NCBI GenBank assembly: GCA_007279945.1
Contig: QYPG01000022.1
Location: forward strand, 1-33,463
DNA length: 33,463 nt
Source: Streptomycetaceae bacterium
GTDB taxonomy: Bacteria > Actinomycetota > Actinomycetes > Nanopelagicales > Nanopelagicaceae
Direction of reading: 5' to 3'
Positions 1 through 4,450 of the stretch are shown piece by piece. Under the pieces are notes generated by a model. It was given only the letters and a program-made list of their open reading frames with translations, did no database searches and was not told the origin of the DNA. The number at the start of each line of letters is the position of its first letter. The stretch's first letter is position 1. Both the position numbers and the translations under genes were made by a program.

Positions 1-3
1 GAG

Positions 4-86
4 CGGAGGATGAGGGATTTGAACCCTCGAGACTTTCATCTACGCGTGTTCGAGACGCGCGCACTCGGCCGCTATGCGAATCCTCC
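4..86 (-). tRNA. tRNA-Ser (anticodon CGA), copy 1
   Basis: Read on the minus strand, an 83-nt class II tRNA folds fully: acceptor GGAGGAT/ATCCTCC, D-stem GCA/TGC, anticodon stem CGCGT/ACGCG, loop CTCGAAC (anticodon CGA, reads UCG), a long variable arm, and T-stem GAGGG/CCCTC. The discriminator is G and CCA is not encoded. It is identical base for base to the copy at 3148-3230, which is unusual in so compact a genome. It lies downstream of the cytosolic protein A gene and has its own promoter at 93-121. Confidence 0.96.
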
Positions 87-92
87 ACACGA

Positions 93-121
93 ATCATACA
101 AAGATTGGCATTGTTTCACAA
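93..121 (-). promoter_or_regulatory. Promoter of tRNA-Ser(CGA) copy 1
   Basis: On the minus strand, a -35 box TTGTGA (121-116), a 17-bp spacer and a -10 box TATGAT (98-93) end six bases before the tRNA. The same architecture is kept in front of copy 2, with -10 TATCAT, although spacer and flanks have diverged. That conservation supports a working promoter. It lies just past the stop codon of the 132-629 gene. Confidence 0.7.
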
Positions 122-131
122 AGCTTTTACC

Positions 132-629
132 TTATGCATTTAGCTTTTTCATCAAATCTGAGTCGTTAATTCTCAATTTATTAATTAATCCAACAATCCG
201 ACTACCACCATTCGAAAAATATCTCAGATCAAAATAGGGGTAAGCGATGATGCAGTAACCCGCCTCATCCTGTGGGTTTCGACCTTGAAGGGGGTAGTTC
301 CAAATGATTTCAACTTCCGTCTGGGCGAAGAATTTGACGAGTTTTCTAACGCGATATCTTGAAAGGCCCTTGAGTTTTACCTCTCGCACATTTTCTTGGT
401 ATGCCAAATTTCCTTTCTTTCGAGCAGAATAACTAACTGTGTCTCCACTTAAAGAATAGAAGATGTCGCCATTAGCTATATTCCTTTTTAAACTTTTCGA
501 CTCTATGAGCTCAAATGCATCTAAGCTGTAGAGTTTGGACTTAGTTTTGATGAAGAATTCGTACAATGCCAGCCGCTCTCGATCATGCAAGTGCTGGCCA
601 AGAGTAAGAAGCTCTTCATAAAAACTCAT
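132..629 (-). CDS. Uncharacterised cytosolic protein A (FFAQTE-motif family)
   Basis: A protein of about 165 residues that I do not recognise. It has no signal peptide or membrane segment. Near residue 108 it carries FFAQTEVEII, matching FFAKTEANIL in the 3293-3631 protein and LFAQSDAGLI in the 2138-2467 protein, so the three look like diverged paralogues. A further C-terminal part of about 50 residues, absent from the other two, ends in KKLNA. Start choice is ATG at 629; an in-frame GTG at 644 would overlap the upstream gene's stop. Each paralogue directly follows a secreted four-cysteine gene, so the pair is probably co-transcribed and may work together. Function unknown. Confidence 0.72.
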   Translation of the reverse strand: MSFYEELLTLGQHLHDRERLALYEFFIKTKSKLYSLDAFELIESKSLKRNIANGDIFYSLSGDTVSYSARKKGNLAYQENVREVKLKGLSRYRVRKLVKFFAQTEVEIIWNYPLQGRNPQDEAGYCIIAYPYFDLRYFSNGGSRIVGLINKLRINDSDLMKKLNA

Positions 630-633
630 TCCC

Positions 634-1143
634 CTATTTTGCACTAATTCGACAGTTCATGGGGTTAGGTTTATCAGAGTTATCTGAAACAGCAACTGTG
701 CGCATATCTTTGAGATGTACCTGTCCGTATGCCCGCCCAGAGTAATCTACCCTTCCTTTTCCATTGCATGGAACCGTCACATTCTCAATCAAAACGTAAT
801 TTGGCCGGCCAGGTTCAGGCCGAGCAATTATGTTTGCAATTACTTTCACAACTTTGTTGCCACGATTAGGCAAAACTTCTTCAAACTTAACTGTGAGTGA
901 TGTATATGCCTGGGGCACATCACAGAGCGTACTTATCTTGAGTTTCGCTTCACTTAATTTTTGAAATTCAAGTGAATATGTTGATTGGTGCACTCTTTGC
1001 ACGTTTATTCTGCAGCTGGGCTCACTCTGCTTGTTTGTATTACTAACTACATATTGAGCAGCTAGTAACCCAATTAGGAGCCAAATTGGGACCTTAGCTC
1101 TGATGATGGCGGGGATTAGTGGCTTTGGATTTGGTTGAAACAT
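634..1143 (-). CDS. Secreted or membrane-anchored four-cysteine protein A
   Basis: 169 residues, unrecognised. An N-terminal hydrophobic stretch (about residues 18-34, following basic residues) looks like a signal anchor or long signal peptide. The exported part has four cysteines in the contexts SCRIN, LCDVP, PCNGK and NCRIS, and a DYSGRAYG motif. The secreted genes at 2483-2950 and 3646-4119 show the same four-cysteine order and a Y-x-G-x-A-Y motif, so this is the most diverged of three paralogues. Two disulfides outside the membrane are plausible. The cytosolic partner gene follows directly, with overlap or near-overlap. No enzyme motif is visible. Confidence 0.74.
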   Translation of the reverse strand: MFQPNPKPLIPAIIRAKVPIWLLIGLLAAQYVVSNTNKQSEPSCRINVQRVHQSTYSLEFQKLSEAKLKISTLCDVPQAYTSLTVKFEEVLPNRGNKVVKVIANIIARPEPGRPNYVLIENVTVPCNGKGRVDYSGRAYGQVHLKDMRTVAVSDNSDKPNPMNCRISAK

Positions 1144-1219
1144 CTCATCAAATTAATAAGGTTCGGCTTCGAAGTGAATCAGGGTAACCCCACCCGTAGT
1201 TTGGAGCGGTAGTCGCTCT

Positions 1220-2092
1220 CTAGAGAGTTAAGGAGCGAATCGCCGCATTTAGAATTTCGGCGCGTTTTTCTACCATGATACTGCCATGATGTTGACCTTC
1301 TAAGAGTTCTAATGTTGGGTTGCAGAGATTTTCATTGAACCATCTAGCCATATGAGGTGACACGCTCAAATCATCTAGACCTTGCCAAATAACGACTGGA
1401 ACACGAACATCTTTAACTTCAAACCCCCAATTTCTAAGAAATGCGTATTCGTCTTCGGCATATCCAATAACACCAACTCTTAAAGCGTCACGGAGTGAAA
1501 GACTCAAGTCTTCTGCAAATGCGCGGTATACATTCTCAAATGAACTAAAACTCGCACGCTTCGCATACTCAACTAAAAACTCTTCTGCTTTTCGGTCACG
1601 AATTTCTGCGTAGTAGCCCTGCTTAAAGGCAATGGAGTCTGCCAGGCTTGCTACAGATATTTTTGCCTCCTCAATGCTTTCAGGACTTTGATCTTGAAAC
1701 CAATCAAAATCTTCTGCATCATAAGGAGACACGCTCGCGATCAATTGGACTCCAGAGCATCTTTCCAAAAGCCCTGAAGCCAATGCGTATGGTCCACCAC
1801 CTGACCATCCAATAGAGACGAAGTTTTCTACTTCTAGGTGGTTTAAAATTTCTTCCAGATCATTATTTGCGCTAATAACCGTATGATCAACTTTTCTATC
1901 GCTACCGGCATATCCAGGGCGAGTGAATGCAATAGCTCTAATTCCTACTTCTGCAATGGCTGCTAACCATGTGCCCCAAACAGCCATCGATGTTGGAGTT
2001 CCGTGATGAAGGATTAATGCCGACTTAGATGAAACTCCATTGTCGGTATAGTCGAGCGCGCGACCATCCGAGAGCTTGAGGGAGCTACTCAT
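1220..2092 (-). CDS. Alpha/beta-fold hydrolase
   Basis: 290 residues with the alpha/beta hydrolase signature: HHGTP oxyanion loop (about residue 29), nucleophile elbow GWSGGG with the serine near residue 96, an acidic residue in GLDDLSV (about 240) and the catalytic histidine in GQHHGS (about 268). No signal peptide, so cytosolic. Substrate cannot be told; the fold covers esterases, epoxide hydrolases, C-C hydrolases and prolyl peptidases. It sits between modules B and A of the repeated secreted/cytosolic pair and has no counterpart in module C, so it looks like a passenger or an insertion. No Shine-Dalgarno sequence is seen before the ATG. Confidence 0.88.
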   Translation of the reverse strand: MSSSLKLSDGRALDYTDNGVSSKSALILHHGTPTSMAVWGTWLAAIAEVGIRAIAFTRPGYAGSDRKVDHTVISANNDLEEILNHLEVENFVSIGWSGGGPYALASGLLERCSGVQLIASVSPYDAEDFDWFQDQSPESIEEAKISVASLADSIAFKQGYYAEIRDRKAEEFLVEYAKRASFSSFENVYRAFAEDLSLSLRDALRVGVIGYAEDEYAFLRNWGFEVKDVRVPVVIWQGLDDLSVSPHMARWFNENLCNPTLELLEGQHHGSIMVEKRAEILNAAIRSLTL

Positions 2093-2137
2093 AAGAACTT
2101 ATTGCCTGACTTAAATTTGTCTCGAAAGAGATCCAAA

Positions 2138-2467
2138 TCATTGAATTAAACCAGCATCACTTTGTGCAAATAGCTCAATTAATTCCTCGACTTGGTCTGC
2201 TCTGGCTTCTGGGATGGGGGCAAAAGTTGAGTAATTATCACCCGTGGGTAACTTAGATGTTGCAGTACACGCAAACTGGTTGTCTTCTATAGAAAACTCA
2301 AACAGATAACCGTTCGTTTCTGATGAAAAGTACCCTAAATCTAAAAATTCGTTGGCTTGTTTTTCATATCTTGAGCGCTCATCCTGCATTAATCTGAAGC
2401 ATTCCCGAATGACAACCGATTCCCGGCGCTTTTGCTCAGAAGTTAAAAATACTTCCTCAGATTCCAT
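2138..2467 (-). CDS. Uncharacterised cytosolic protein B (FAQS-motif family)
   Basis: 109 residues, rich in Glu and Arg at the N-terminus, no signal peptide or membrane segment. The C-terminus ELFAQSDAGLIQ matches the FFA-[QK]-T-E segment of the proteins at 132-629 and 3293-3631. The middle (GYLFEFSIEDNQFACTAT) parallels GYSVKYTLDRTGCWFDAT of protein C in spacing and pattern. It starts 15 bases after the stop of secreted protein B, so the two are very likely co-transcribed. I do not recognise a known family. Confidence 0.7.
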   Translation of the reverse strand: MESEEVFLTSEQKRRESVVIRECFRLMQDERSRYEKQANEFLDLGYFSSETNGYLFEFSIEDNQFACTATSKLPTGDNYSTFAPIPEARADQVEELIELFAQSDAGLIQ

Positions 2468-2482
2468 AGTAGTAAGAGTATC

Positions 2483-2950
2483 TTAAGTACCACAATTCAA
2501 AGGGATAGTTTCTAAAGAAAGCACATGGCGAGCGTACTGCCATTTCCCCGCAATGAATGCCTTCGAGTATGCCACACCGTAATAACTTGTTCTCGCTATA
2601 TTCTCACAAAATTTATAGGTTGAAAAGTTGTTCACTTGACTTCCCGGGTAGGTCGTACCGGAACTATTTATGGTCTTTGTGAGAACTAGATGATTTTGCA
2701 ATTTCCCTTTCTTCCAAATTTCCACAGTAATCGTGACATTGGTTTGTGGAATATTGCATTTTGATGAGGCATTAACTTTTACGGCCCGGATGTTAAATTT
2801 TTCAAAGAGATCTGTAGATATGTGCGCAATGCCGACTTGGAGGCGGCATGGCGGCTTTGGTTGCTTTTTACTTGGCTGATTTCCCGCTGCCGAGCTCATA
2901 TTTATCAGTAAGAAAATGATTAGTAAGCCAAAAGCTTTGTGTAGTTTCAT
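2483..2950 (-). CDS. Secreted four-cysteine protein B
   Basis: 155 residues. A classical signal peptide (MKLHK, a hydrophobic core to about residue 17, then SSAAG) suggests Sec export. The mature part has four cysteines in the contexts PPCRL, SKCNI, KFCEN and LNCGT (C-terminal), plus SYYGVAYSKAF. It aligns along its whole length with the 3646-4119 protein: VKVNASSKCN against IKVNARSRCN, ITVEI against LTVEI, YYGVAY against YYGEAY, and NCG at both ends. The mid region resembles an all-beta exported domain, which is inference only. The cytosolic partner follows after 15 bases. Function unknown. Confidence 0.78.
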   Translation of the reverse strand: MKLHKAFGLLIIFLLINMSSAAGNQPSKKQPKPPCRLQVGIAHISTDLFEKFNIRAVKVNASSKCNIPQTNVTITVEIWKKGKLQNHLVLTKTINSSGTTYPGSQVNNFSTYKFCENIARTSYYGVAYSKAFIAGKWQYARHVLSLETIPLNCGT

Positions 2951-2988
2951 ATTCGAAGCGTCACAGGAACTGCGACGTTGCCCAGAAG

Positions 2989-2997
2989 TTATCCACA
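2989..2997 (+). promoter_or_regulatory. Single consensus DnaA box
   Basis: TTATCCACA matches the consensus DnaA box exactly and lies about 40 bp upstream of secreted gene B. It is the only perfect box I noticed. A chance match on either strand of a window this size is not improbable, so a regulatory role is only a suggestion and this is not an origin. Confidence 0.3.
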
Positions 2998-3018
2998 GCC
3001 TTTTAAGAAAGTGACGGA

Positions 3019-3057
3019 GAGTGATTCAGCCGAAGCGAGTAAAACGAGTGGAGGATG
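3019..3057. repeat. 39-bp direct repeat, orphan copy containing the 3' tip of a tRNA-Ser
   Basis: Matches 3118-3156 at 37 of 39 positions. In the other copy the last nine bases belong to the tRNA-Ser(CGA) acceptor end and discriminator region, and the first 30 are its 3' flank. Here the match stops after GGAGGATG and the rest of the tRNA is missing. It is either a relic of a deleted third tRNA copy or an attachment-site-like repeat left by an insertion at the tRNA 3' end. Confidence 0.8.
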
Positions 3058-3117
3058 TCCGAGCTTGTGATTTCTAAACTAGGCACTGGTTCCAGCCAAA
3101 CCACTGAATAGTTAAAT

Positions 3118-3156
3118 GAGTGATTCAGCCGAAGCGAGTGAAACGAGCGGAGGATG
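3118..3156. repeat. 39-bp direct repeat, copy joined to intact tRNA-Ser(CGA) copy 2
   Basis: Partner of the repeat at 3019-3057, 99 bp apart. It runs from the tRNA's 3' flank into the acceptor stem. The three bases kept at the very start of the window (GAG before the copy 1 tRNA) agree with the same flank, so copy 1 probably has it too, but most of it lies outside the window. Confidence 0.8.
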
Positions 3157-3230
3157 AGGGATTTGAACCCTCGAGACTTTCATCTACGCGTGTTCGAGAC
3201 GCGCGCACTCGGCCGCTATGCGAATCCTCC
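3148..3230 (-). tRNA. tRNA-Ser (anticodon CGA), copy 2
   Basis: Identical over all 83 nt to the tRNA at 4-86, with the same fold and CGA anticodon. It is preceded by a matching promoter (3237-3265) and followed by a flank that recurs 99 bp further on. It lies between the cytosolic protein C gene upstream and the secreted protein B gene downstream. Confidence 0.96.
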
Positions 3231-3236
3231 TTGGGA

Positions 3237-3265
3237 ATGATACAAAGTTTGGCATTGATTCACAA
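3237..3265 (-). promoter_or_regulatory. Promoter of tRNA-Ser(CGA) copy 2
   Basis: -35 TTGTGA (3265-3260), 17-bp spacer, -10 TATCAT (3242-3237), ending six bases before the tRNA. The hexamers and spacing match copy 1, apart from one base in the -10 box. Confidence 0.65.
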
Positions 3266-3292
3266 AGCTCTTACCTTATGCACTTAGTTTTT

Positions 3293-3631
3293 TTAGAGCT
3301 CTTCCGGCATCAAGATATTTGCTTCGGTTTTCGCAAAGAAATCAGGCAGGGCTTTTCTTTTCGCCTTTTTACCCCAACCGAATCTATTCCAGGATCTTTT
3401 TCCTATTCCCTTGTCTGAATTAGTCGCATCAAACCAACACCCGGTTCTGTCTAGTGTGTACTTCACCGAGTACCCACTAAGTTCTAACTCAATACTTTTC
3501 TTGTGAAGCAAAAGTTCGGTTTGCTCTAGATAGCGGTGAGAATTCTTAGTTCGAAGTTCTATGACGAGAGAAAAATAGGCATCATCCCATTCTTGGTCAG
3601 CTATCAATCCACTTTCATCGCTCGAACTCAT
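3293..3631 (-). CDS. Uncharacterised cytosolic protein C (FFAKTE-motif family)
   Basis: 112 residues with no export signal. FFAKTEANIL near the C-terminus matches FFAQTEVEII in protein A and LFAQSDAGLI in protein B. The segment from about residue 20 to 60 (SLVIELRTKNSHRYLEQ onwards) parallels protein A in pattern. Compared with A it lacks the C-terminal extension: a stop follows EEL, and the DNA for the KKLNA-like end remains downstream out of frame, which suggests loss of the tail. It starts 14 bases after secreted gene C. Function unknown. Confidence 0.7.
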   Translation of the reverse strand: MSSSDESGLIADQEWDDAYFSLVIELRTKNSHRYLEQTELLLHKKSIELELSGYSVKYTLDRTGCWFDATNSDKGIGKRSWNRFGWGKKAKRKALPDFFAKTEANILMPEEL

Positions 3632-3645
3632 GCCTGAATTCTACG

Positions 3646-4119
3646 CTAATTACCGCAATTCACGGTGATGGTTTTTTCTGTCAAAACATGAAGAGTTTTC
3701 AGACGCTCACCTTTTATAAAGGCGGAAGCGTATGCTTCTCCGTAATATTTCGAAGATTTCGAGTTTTTACACTCCACGTAGGTTCCTTGATTCTTGATAA
3801 TCGTGTTCGGGAATATTGGGCCCTCAACTCTTATTTCTCTACTGGCAACCTTGTAATCCCTCAGAAAACCAAGTTTGTGAATTTCAACCGTTAATACAAG
3901 GTTAGTCATCTGCCGATTGCACCGAGATCGGGCATTAACTTTTATCGCCTGGAAGCCTTTTCTAATTTCTACTGACTTTGAATAATGAGGGTTATCCAAT
4001 TTGATATTGCACTTAGTAAGTGGAGGGGTTGCTTCAGAAAAAGGTAAAGAAGCAAAGAGGTTGATAAGAATCAGCGAAAGAAAAAAGAGGGGGCTTTTGA
4101 ATGATTTGATTGTGGTCAT
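3646..4119 (-). CDS. Secreted four-cysteine protein C
   Basis: 157 residues. Signal peptide with basic start (MTTIKSFK), a hydrophobic core over about residues 10-25 and a likely cut after SEA. Four cysteines occur in the contexts TKCNI, SRCNR, VECKN and VNCGN, plus KYYGEAYASAF. It aligns end to end with protein B and more loosely with protein A. No Shine-Dalgarno sequence precedes the ATG. The gene begins about 65 bp downstream of the 3' end of tRNA-Ser(GGA), on the same strand, and is followed after 14 bases by its cytosolic partner. No known domain recognised. Confidence 0.78.
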   Translation of the reverse strand: MTTIKSFKSPLFFLSLILINLFASLPFSEATPPLTKCNIKLDNPHYSKSVEIRKGFQAIKVNARSRCNRQMTNLVLTVEIHKLGFLRDYKVASREIRVEGPIFPNTIIKNQGTYVECKNSKSSKYYGEAYASAFIKGERLKTLHVLTEKTITVNCGN

Positions 4120-4183
4120 GCCGCGAGGATGACAAAAACTCCAGACAAGCCCTCTTGGTTATCCTCAGAGTAAGTAAATCTGG

Positions 4184-4268
4184 CGGAGGATGAGGGATTT
4201 GAACCCTCGAAAGGTTGCCCTTTACACGCTTTCCAAGCGTGCGCACTCGGCCGCTATGCGAATCCTCC
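4184..4268 (-). tRNA. tRNA-Ser (anticodon GGA)
   Basis: 85-nt class II tRNA on the minus strand. Acceptor GGAGGAT/ATCCTCC and the D-arm are the same as in the CGA isoacceptors. The anticodon stem is CACGC/GCGTG with loop TTGGAAA, giving anticodon GGA (reads UCC and UCU). The variable arm forms AAAGG-GCAA-CCTTT. Discriminator G, no encoded CCA. Its 5' side faces the SRP RNA gene, so the 40-odd bases between them must hold divergent promoters. Confidence 0.96.
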
Positions 4269-4305: not shown

Positions 4306-4310
4306 TACGC

Positions 4311-4402
4311 CAGATCCCTCGTACGGCGTTACCGTACCGAACTCCCCCAGGGCAGGAATGCAGCAAGGGTAGGTCCGCTCTGGCGGGTGTACGAGGGGTC
4401 CT
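4311..4402 (+). ncRNA. ffs: Signal recognition particle RNA, small bacterial (4.5S) type
   Basis: A single long hairpin. The outer stem GATCCCTCGTAC (4313-4324) pairs with GTACGAGGGGTC (4389-4400). The apical part holds the conserved Ffh-binding region, with ACTCCCCCAGG on one side, GGAA tetraloop closed by GCA/TGC, and AGCAAGGGTAG on the other. It binds Ffh to deliver nascent membrane and secreted proteins. CCTTTT after the closing stem may end transcription. An SRP RNA just before dnaX is common in actinobacteria. Confidence 0.93.
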
Positions 4403-4450
4403 TTTCACGGTTTAATTCGAGCGGGCGCAGATCAGTAGAGGAGCACAGCG

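What the first reader, a model, noticed from the sequence alone, without database searches (positions are those of the whole stretch)
132..4119. Three-copy secreted four-cysteine plus cytosolic partner module
Three gene pairs (4119-3293, 2950-2138, 1143-132) have the same order: an exported protein with four cysteines and a Y-x-G-x-A-Y motif, then a small cytosolic protein with F-A-[QK]-[ST]-[DE] near its end. In each pair the second gene starts within about 15 bases of, or overlaps, the first. Paralogues have diverged strongly while keeping cysteines and gene order. Exported plus internal partner, local amplification and rapid divergence recall effector/immunity or recognition systems, but no toxin or adhesin motif is seen. 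I recognise no described family.
Basis: partly seen in the sequence, partly recalled or inferred. Interest (0 to 1): 0.78.

Follow-up and report, generated by a model that had tools for sequence, protein, structure and literature searches.

The report
Shuffled exported-plus-internal gene pair cassettes
The most abundant freshwater bacteria carry, beside one serine-tRNA gene, swappable pairs of small genes (one exported immunoglobulin-like protein, one protein that stays inside) that are traded between species; no described family matches them, and they look like a recognition or conflict system whose function is still unproven.

Summary
Each of the three pairs encodes an exported four-cysteine protein (S) and a cytosolic partner (P), and all three are homologous. 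The pair recurs across the acI family (S in 70, P in 72 of 296 genomes, both in 60; Fisher p 1e-39). It was not detected in class- and phylum-wide samples outside the family. No Pfam, NCBIfam, PHROGs, PADLOC or PDB sequence match was found.

S1 is modelled as an immunoglobulin-like beta-sandwich (pLDDT 71). P1 is modelled as helix-helix-four strands-helix (pLDDT 87), without a clear structural relative.

The pairs sit in one hotspot, dnaX-ffs-tRNA-Ser(GGA)|cargo|ALDH, which is empty in some relatives. They are not local duplicates: they belong to three old classes, and each has its nearest relative in a different species. S synonymous divergence is about 3-11 times below that of core genes, which means inter-species exchange. 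Within classes, S and P reassort. Both genes are under purifying selection. Class-A P genes carry a conserved leaderless-type promoter.

Best reading: a horizontally shuffled surface-recognition or conflict cassette, organised like Thermococcales VARTIG. An effector/immunity role remains possible. Function is inferred, not shown.

The parts
3646..4119 (-). S1: exported protein, class A1, 157 aa, 4 Cys, net charge +13
   Evidence: ORF; homologues; Ig-like model pLDDT 71
3293..3631 (-). P1: cytosolic partner, class A1, 112 aa
   Evidence: model pLDDT 87
3638..3643 (-). TAGAAT, -10-like element 6 nt before the P1 ATG (predicted leaderless promoter)
   Evidence: TAnnnT placed 4-9 nt before the P start in 28 of 34 class-A-type gaps vs 5% of all ATG/GTG
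2483..2950 (-). S2: exported protein, class A2, 155 aa
2138..2467 (-). P2: cytosolic partner, class A2, 109 aa
2475..2480 (-). TACTCT, -10-like element 7 nt before the P2 ATG
634..1143 (-). S3: exported or membrane-anchored protein, class B, 169 aa
   Evidence: class-B profile match
132..629 (-). P3: cytosolic partner, class B, with C-terminal extension; start most likely ATG 629 rather than GTG 644
4181..4268 (-). tRNA-Ser(GGA), fixed left edge of the hotspot
   Evidence: in same place in relatives
3147..3230 (-). tRNA-Ser(CGA), copy 1, between pairs 1 and 2
3..86 (-). tRNA-Ser(CGA), copy 2, after pair 3, at contig end
   Evidence: contig C47 continues with exact 141-nt overlap
1..149 (-). 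direct repeat copy (93%); continues into contig C47, 248 nt in all
3145..3293 (-). direct repeat copy; the two copies bound a 3,144-nt unit holding pairs 2 and 3
1220..2092 (-). alpha/beta hydrolase, cargo between pairs 2 and 3, also in other genomes' hotspots
   Evidence: Pfam Abhydrolase_1 E 1e-12; cluster c15
4310..4406 (+). ffs (small SRP RNA), conserved neighbour of the hotspot
   Evidence: Rfam RF00169 62.8 bits
4451..6142 (+). dnaX, conserved neighbour (then recR, lysC, asd)
   Evidence: gene identity from own knowledge of the sequence; synteny

Best explanation
Each pair is a horizontally traded cassette for an outward-facing interaction. Shown: the cassettes occupy one chromosomal hotspot behind tRNA-Ser(GGA), belong to a few old classes, move between species and recombine within classes, while both proteins stay under purifying selection. 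Predicted from sequence or model: S is exported, held by two disulfides in an immunoglobulin-like beta-sandwich, and strongly basic, so it probably stays on the cell envelope (class B probably through an uncleaved N-terminal helix). P stays inside, is expressed from its own leaderless promoter (class A) or by coupling to S (class B), and has a helix-helix-four-strand-helix fold. Inferred: S is an exchangeable surface recognition or blocking protein in conflicts with phages or competing cells. P is its class-matched internal half (sensor, effector or self-protection). Frequency-dependent selection on recognition types favours trading alleles between species over inventing them in place.
For: Pair conserved: S in 70 and P in 72 of 296 family genomes, both in 60, Fisher p 1e-39, mostly adjacent with a 14-15 nt gap. 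Hotspot: nearly all copies lie between tRNA-Ser(GGA) and an aldehyde dehydrogenase gene. The site is empty in G063, G072, G009 and G116, where tRNA and ALDH abut, and holds other cargo elsewhere. Exchange: G000 vs LanE-43 core dS 1.56-2.85 but S1 0.45; G000 vs G104 core 0.38-0.72 but S2 0.067 and P2 0.078; G000 vs G095 ALDH 1.21 but S3 0.14 and P3 0.088. Reassortment: G091 matches G004 over S and the 5' end of P, then G010 over the rest of P (363 informative sites, break p 6e-56, 0 of 2000 permutations). LanE-43 S1 is 87% but P1 only 48% identical to the window's. Class lock: S and P identity matrices correlate, r 0.715, 0 of 2000 permutations. S: 4 Cys in 54/55, N-terminal hydrophobic segment in 51/55, mean net charge +12; Ig-like model.
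Against: No functional datum links S or P to phages or competitors. No S or P relative in the phage or plasmid records or viral contigs searched, and no PADLOC match. An exported S and an internal P cannot meet after export, so the inner role of P is unexplained. Class lock may reflect physical linkage only. S is modelled at moderate confidence from four sequences. Ig-like folds serve many functions.
Confidence: 0.42

Rival explanations
1. Effector/immunity pair: S is a small secreted antibacterial protein and P is the internal immunity protein that protects producer and kin.
For: Exported plus internal partner; S strongly cationic. Extra P genes without S lie beside pairs in G111, G131 and G271 and alone in G088, G098, G109 and G191. 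S is broken while P is intact in G066 and G127, and G082's second S is a relic beside a full-length P. VIA lists an immunity protein (7zhm_C TriTu) among weak P matches, Z 4.6, rmsd 4.1, 73 aligned.
Against: S is a small Ig-like sandwich with no recognisable toxin domain. Intact S without detectable P in G158, G258, G262 and G295. Near-identical S sits with P alleles only 48-63% identical. A cytosolic immunity protein would need S to enter the target cytosol. The structural match is within noise.
Confidence: 0.25
2. P is a dedicated folding, export or regulatory partner of S, and S is an ordinary adaptive envelope protein (for example binding a ligand or tuning the cell surface), traded as niche adaptation without any conflict.
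For: Purifying selection on both; weak VIA similarity of P to type III secretion chaperones ExsC and SpcU (Z 3.9 and 3.3) and weak Foldseek similarity to nucleic-acid-binding Whirly/MRP proteins (E 0.1-0.4, TM about 0.35); class lock.
Against: P has its own promoter signal and exists without S; S exists without P; several classes coexist in one genome; high exchange and patchy presence (40% of good genomes) are unusual for a core envelope function; all structural matches weak.
Confidence: 0.2
3. Gene content of a recombination-prone tRNA hotspot with little benefit, kept by exchange alone.
For: Patchy distribution; some broken copies; many different cargos in the same slot.
Against: dN/dS 0.04-0.6 and invariant cysteines show function is maintained in streamlined genomes; the pair also occurs outside the hotspot in G189, G190 and G237.
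Confidence: 0.08

Closest known systems
VARTIG modules of Thermococcales (PMC8416519)
   Same: Surface Ig-domain protein encoded first, partner genes following, restricted to one lineage, diversified by recombination between species, subfamilies matched to particular partners, no toxin domain and no integrase found.
   Different: VARTIG centres on a large multi-domain Ig protein with predicted membrane partners in archaea; here one small four-cysteine Ig-like domain plus one cytosolic protein in actinobacteria. No sequence relation was tested or found.
Polymorphic toxin / immunity systems (PMC3482391, cited from search listing and own knowledge)
   Same: Exported protein plus internal partner, orphan partner genes, shuffling by recombination.
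   Different: No large trafficking protein, no C-terminal toxin domain; S itself is about 130 aa after the signal; S alleles occur with divergent partners.
tRNA-bounded genomic islands
   Same: Insertion slot directly behind a tRNA gene, repeated tRNA copies flanking cargo, empty sites in relatives.
   Different: No integrase or recombinase among the annotated cargo; exchange pattern fits homologous recombination in conserved flanks and within genes.

Membership tests
VARTIG | Ig-domain surface protein | tested here: met
   S1 model is an Ig-like sandwich, pLDDT 71; VIA best Z 9.2 to unrelated Ig-like domains; generic fold only, surface location predicted not shown
VARTIG | large protein with several Ig domains, hypervariable C-terminal Ig domain | tested here: not met
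   S proteins are mostly about 155-180 aa with one domain
VARTIG | restricted to Thermococcales | tested here: not met
   Window genome and all hits lie in one actinobacterial family; LanE-43 is Ca. Planktophila
Polymorphic toxin system | recognisable toxin domain on the exported protein | tested here: inconclusive
   No Pfam, NCBIfam, PADLOC or PHROGs match supports one; an unknown toxin is not excluded
Polymorphic toxin system | adjacent cognate immunity protein that neutralises the toxin | not testable with these tools
   Adjacency shown; neutralisation needs experiment; complex prediction not available
Integrase-driven tRNA genomic island | insertion slot at a tRNA gene with empty site in relatives | tested here: met
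   tRNA-Ser(GGA) next to ALDH in G063, G072, G009, G116
Integrase-driven tRNA genomic island | site-specific integrase in the element | tested here: inconclusive
   No integrase recognised among the cargo representatives scanned; not every singleton ORF was annotated
PC4/Whirly/MRP-like nucleic-acid-binding fold (for P) | four-strand sheet plus helix matching solved members | tested here: inconclusive
   Whirly and MRP entries among top Foldseek rows but E 0.1-0.4 and TM about 0.35; charge of P not conserved
Known anti-phage defence systems | match to a PADLOC model | tested here: not met
   No PADLOC hit for S1-S3 or P1-P3 up to E 0.1

The most novel reading that the evidence does not exclude
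A previously undescribed, lineage-specific bacterial recognition or defence system in the acI freshwater actinobacteria: class-matched pairs of an Ig-like surface protein and a cytosolic partner, kept as an inter-species allele pool at one tRNA-Ser hotspot and reassorted by homologous recombination, acting as a bacterial counterpart of VARTIG in phage or kin interactions.
Probability: 0.3. Interest if true: 0.8.

Novelty: new variant of a known kind. Interest (0 to 1): 0.52.

Why it matters
acI bacteria dominate freshwater plankton and have very small genomes without CRISPR (PMC10202952), so an actively traded, maintained gene pair of unknown function in about 40% of good-quality family genomes is notable. 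A 2024 study reports that secreted proteins of genome-reduced freshwater bacteria are unusually conserved (abstract of PMC11039613); this exported protein is an exception, because it is traded between species. One carrier, LanE-43, is in culture with two lytic phages, so a role in phage interaction can be tested directly.

Tried and rejected
Local tandem duplication: rejected, the three pairs are three classes with nearest relatives in different species. Positive diversifying selection: rejected at gene level, dN/dS 0.04-0.6 in close pairs (site-level tests not run). Known families: no supported hit in Pfam, NCBIfam, PHROGs, PADLOC or PDB sequences (sub-threshold chance-level rows only). Phage or plasmid origin: no relatives in phage records, plasmids or viral contigs; not all six proteins were tried in each. 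Alignment-based viral scans failed because no conserved stretch was long enough. P had no clear structural neighbour: best VIA row 9ukm_I (phage P1 head) Z 6.2 over 73 residues, within the range expected by chance. Literature: no paper found that describes this pair or hotspot. A TAnnnT element before S starts was not general (15 of 55).
Full report
What is there. The window is one whole contig (C29, 33,463 bases) of a 1.33-Mb genome. A strain in the same genus is LanE-43, 'Ca. Planktophila landstejnensis', order 'Ca. Nanopelagicales' (acI), so the window very probably comes from Planktophila. On the minus strand, reading away from dnaX, the order is: ffs (opposite strand), tRNA-Ser(GGA), S1-P1, tRNA-Ser(CGA), S2-P2, alpha/beta hydrolase, S3-P3, tRNA-Ser(CGA), contig end. 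The end overlaps contig C47 of the same genome by exactly 141 nt. C47 continues with a second alpha/beta hydrolase and then ALDH, an APC-type permease and tadA. So the island is probably bounded by tRNA-Ser(GGA) and ALDH; the join rests on an overlap inside a repeat. The repeat around the two tRNA-Ser(CGA) copies is 248 nt at 93.5% identity and bounds a 3,144-nt unit with pairs 2 and 3. Names of the flanking genes (dnaX, recR, lysC, asd, ALDH, permease, tadA) are my reading of their sequences.

Is the observation sound? Yes. Cysteines, motifs, order and spacing are as described, with two corrections: P3 probably starts at ATG 629, and its FAQTE is not near the end. Homology of the three pairs was tested without circularity by comparing class-specific profiles (S A vs B E 1.8e-19; P comparisons 1.8e-11 to 2.4e-8). 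In 55 full-length S proteins, Cys1, Cys3 and Cys4 are invariant and Cys2 is missing once; His45 and Ser47 of S1 are also invariant.

Distribution. A 25-sequence S profile (A3) finds S in 70 of 296 genomes of the family (43 of 108 good ones, 8 of 17 genera). A separate search with a 29-sequence P profile (A4) finds P in 72. Both occur in 60, Fisher p 1e-39. The order search returned the same 296 genomes. In an evenly drawn class sample of 395 genomes all 20 hits were in the family, and a phylum sample of 396 gave only the window genome. Restriction to the family is therefore supported for detectable relatives, not proven.

Place. In nearly all fetched loci the pair lies between dnaX-ffs-tRNA-Ser(GGA) and ALDH-permease-tadA. 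Genomes without the pair have an empty site (G063, G072, G009, G116) or other cargo. Exceptions are G189 and G190, where the pair lies beside genes I read as an ABC-F protein and ribosomal-protein genes, and G237, beside tRNA-Ile and tRNA-Ala. Cargo includes alpha/beta hydrolases, DUF952, and a Fic/Doc protein behind a short possible antitoxin (the antitoxin match is below Pfam's cut-off).

History. The three window pairs are not duplicates of one another. S1 is nearest to LanE-43 (87%), S2 to G104 (91%) and S3 to G095 (99%), while S2 and S3 are 34% and 20% identical to S1. Synonymous divergence shows exchange between species: core dS to LanE-43 is 1.56-2.85 against 0.45 for S1; to G104 0.38-0.72 against 0.067 for S2; to G095 1.21 (ALDH only) against 0.14 for S3. 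The larger dS values are near saturation, so the ratios are rough. Within classes the two genes reassort: G091 carries an S and P start like G004 and a P body like G010, with a sharp break about 100 nt into P; the LanE-43 and window S1 genes are near-identical in blocks but their P genes differ beyond codon about 20. Between classes S and P identity matrices agree broadly (Mantel r 0.715, 0 of 2000); linkage alone could produce this. dN/dS in close pairs is 0.04-0.61, so both genes are maintained by purifying selection.

Expression. In class A the S stop is followed by TAnnnT placed 6-7 nt before the P start in 28 of 34 cases, against 5% for all ATG/GTG in the same loci when a 4-9 nt distance is allowed. 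Two more fit if a GTG start is used (my reading of the printed sequences). This is the arrangement of leaderless actinobacterial genes (own knowledge; related papers listed). In G117 another gene (cluster c11) sits in the P slot behind the same element. Class B genes are coupled, with the P start 2-4 nt after the S stop. No transcript data were available.

Structure. S1: beta-sandwich, mean pLDDT 71 from four sequences, best model much better than the others. Foldseek and VIA place it among many Ig-like and related sandwiches, best Z 9.2; this gives the fold class, not a function. P1: helix-helix-four strands-helix, pLDDT 87, all five models alike in confidence; no match above noise. S is basic (mean net charge +12), P near neutral on average.

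Interpretation. Shown: a maintained, exchanged, recombining two-gene cassette in a hotspot. Inferred: an exported Ig-like binder plus an internal partner used in conflict or recognition. I put this at 0.42, effector/immunity at 0.25, and a non-conflict envelope function at 0.2. Points for effector/immunity are the extra P genes (G111, G131, G271; alone in G088, G098, G109, G191) and broken S beside intact P (G066, G127). Points against are intact S without P (G158, G258, G262, G295) and reassortment. The closest described organisation is VARTIG, for which its authors leave the same three functions open: conflict, innate immunity, and self/non-self recognition. This pair fails VARTIG membership on size and lineage, so I call it similar in organisation, not a member.

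Noticed in passing
L066:4757-5134 (G117); also L062, L063, L069, L074, L077, L079, L080: A third small gene (cluster c11, about 95-132 aa, no Pfam hit) often sits beside the pair; in G117 it occupies the P slot with the same 14-nt gap and promoter-like element, so it may be an alternative partner.
   Followed up: partly
window 3147-3230 and 3-86; own contig C47:56-139: tRNA-Ser(CGA) is repeated inside a 248-nt direct repeat that bounds a 3,144-nt unit; in several other genera this tRNA lies between the permease and tadA, so it seems to have moved or been copied into the hotspot.
   Followed up: partly
window 3019-3057 and 3118-3156: A 39-nt direct repeat (95%) that includes the last bases of tRNA-Ser(CGA) and its downstream flank, possibly a remnant of an earlier insertion or duplication.
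   Followed up: no
L075:4156-4986 and L076:3231-4061: In two genomes of another genus the pair lies outside the hotspot, between an ABC-F-like gene and genes that look like rplM-rpsI-glmM-glmS.
   Followed up: no
L063:2205-3119 (oriented), L066:5291-6196, L111:322-1227, window 1220-2092: Two alpha/beta hydrolase families (c13, c15) recur as cargo next to the pairs in many species; their link to the pair is unknown.
   Followed up: partly
L069:5775-6493, L089:2843-3414 (oriented): A Fic/Doc protein behind a short ribbon-helix-helix-like gene, probably a toxin-antitoxin pair, shares the hotspot in other species.
   Followed up: partly
L057:4759-5307, L065:4286-5132, L068: Extra P genes without their own S stand in tandem before complete pairs.
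   Followed up: partly
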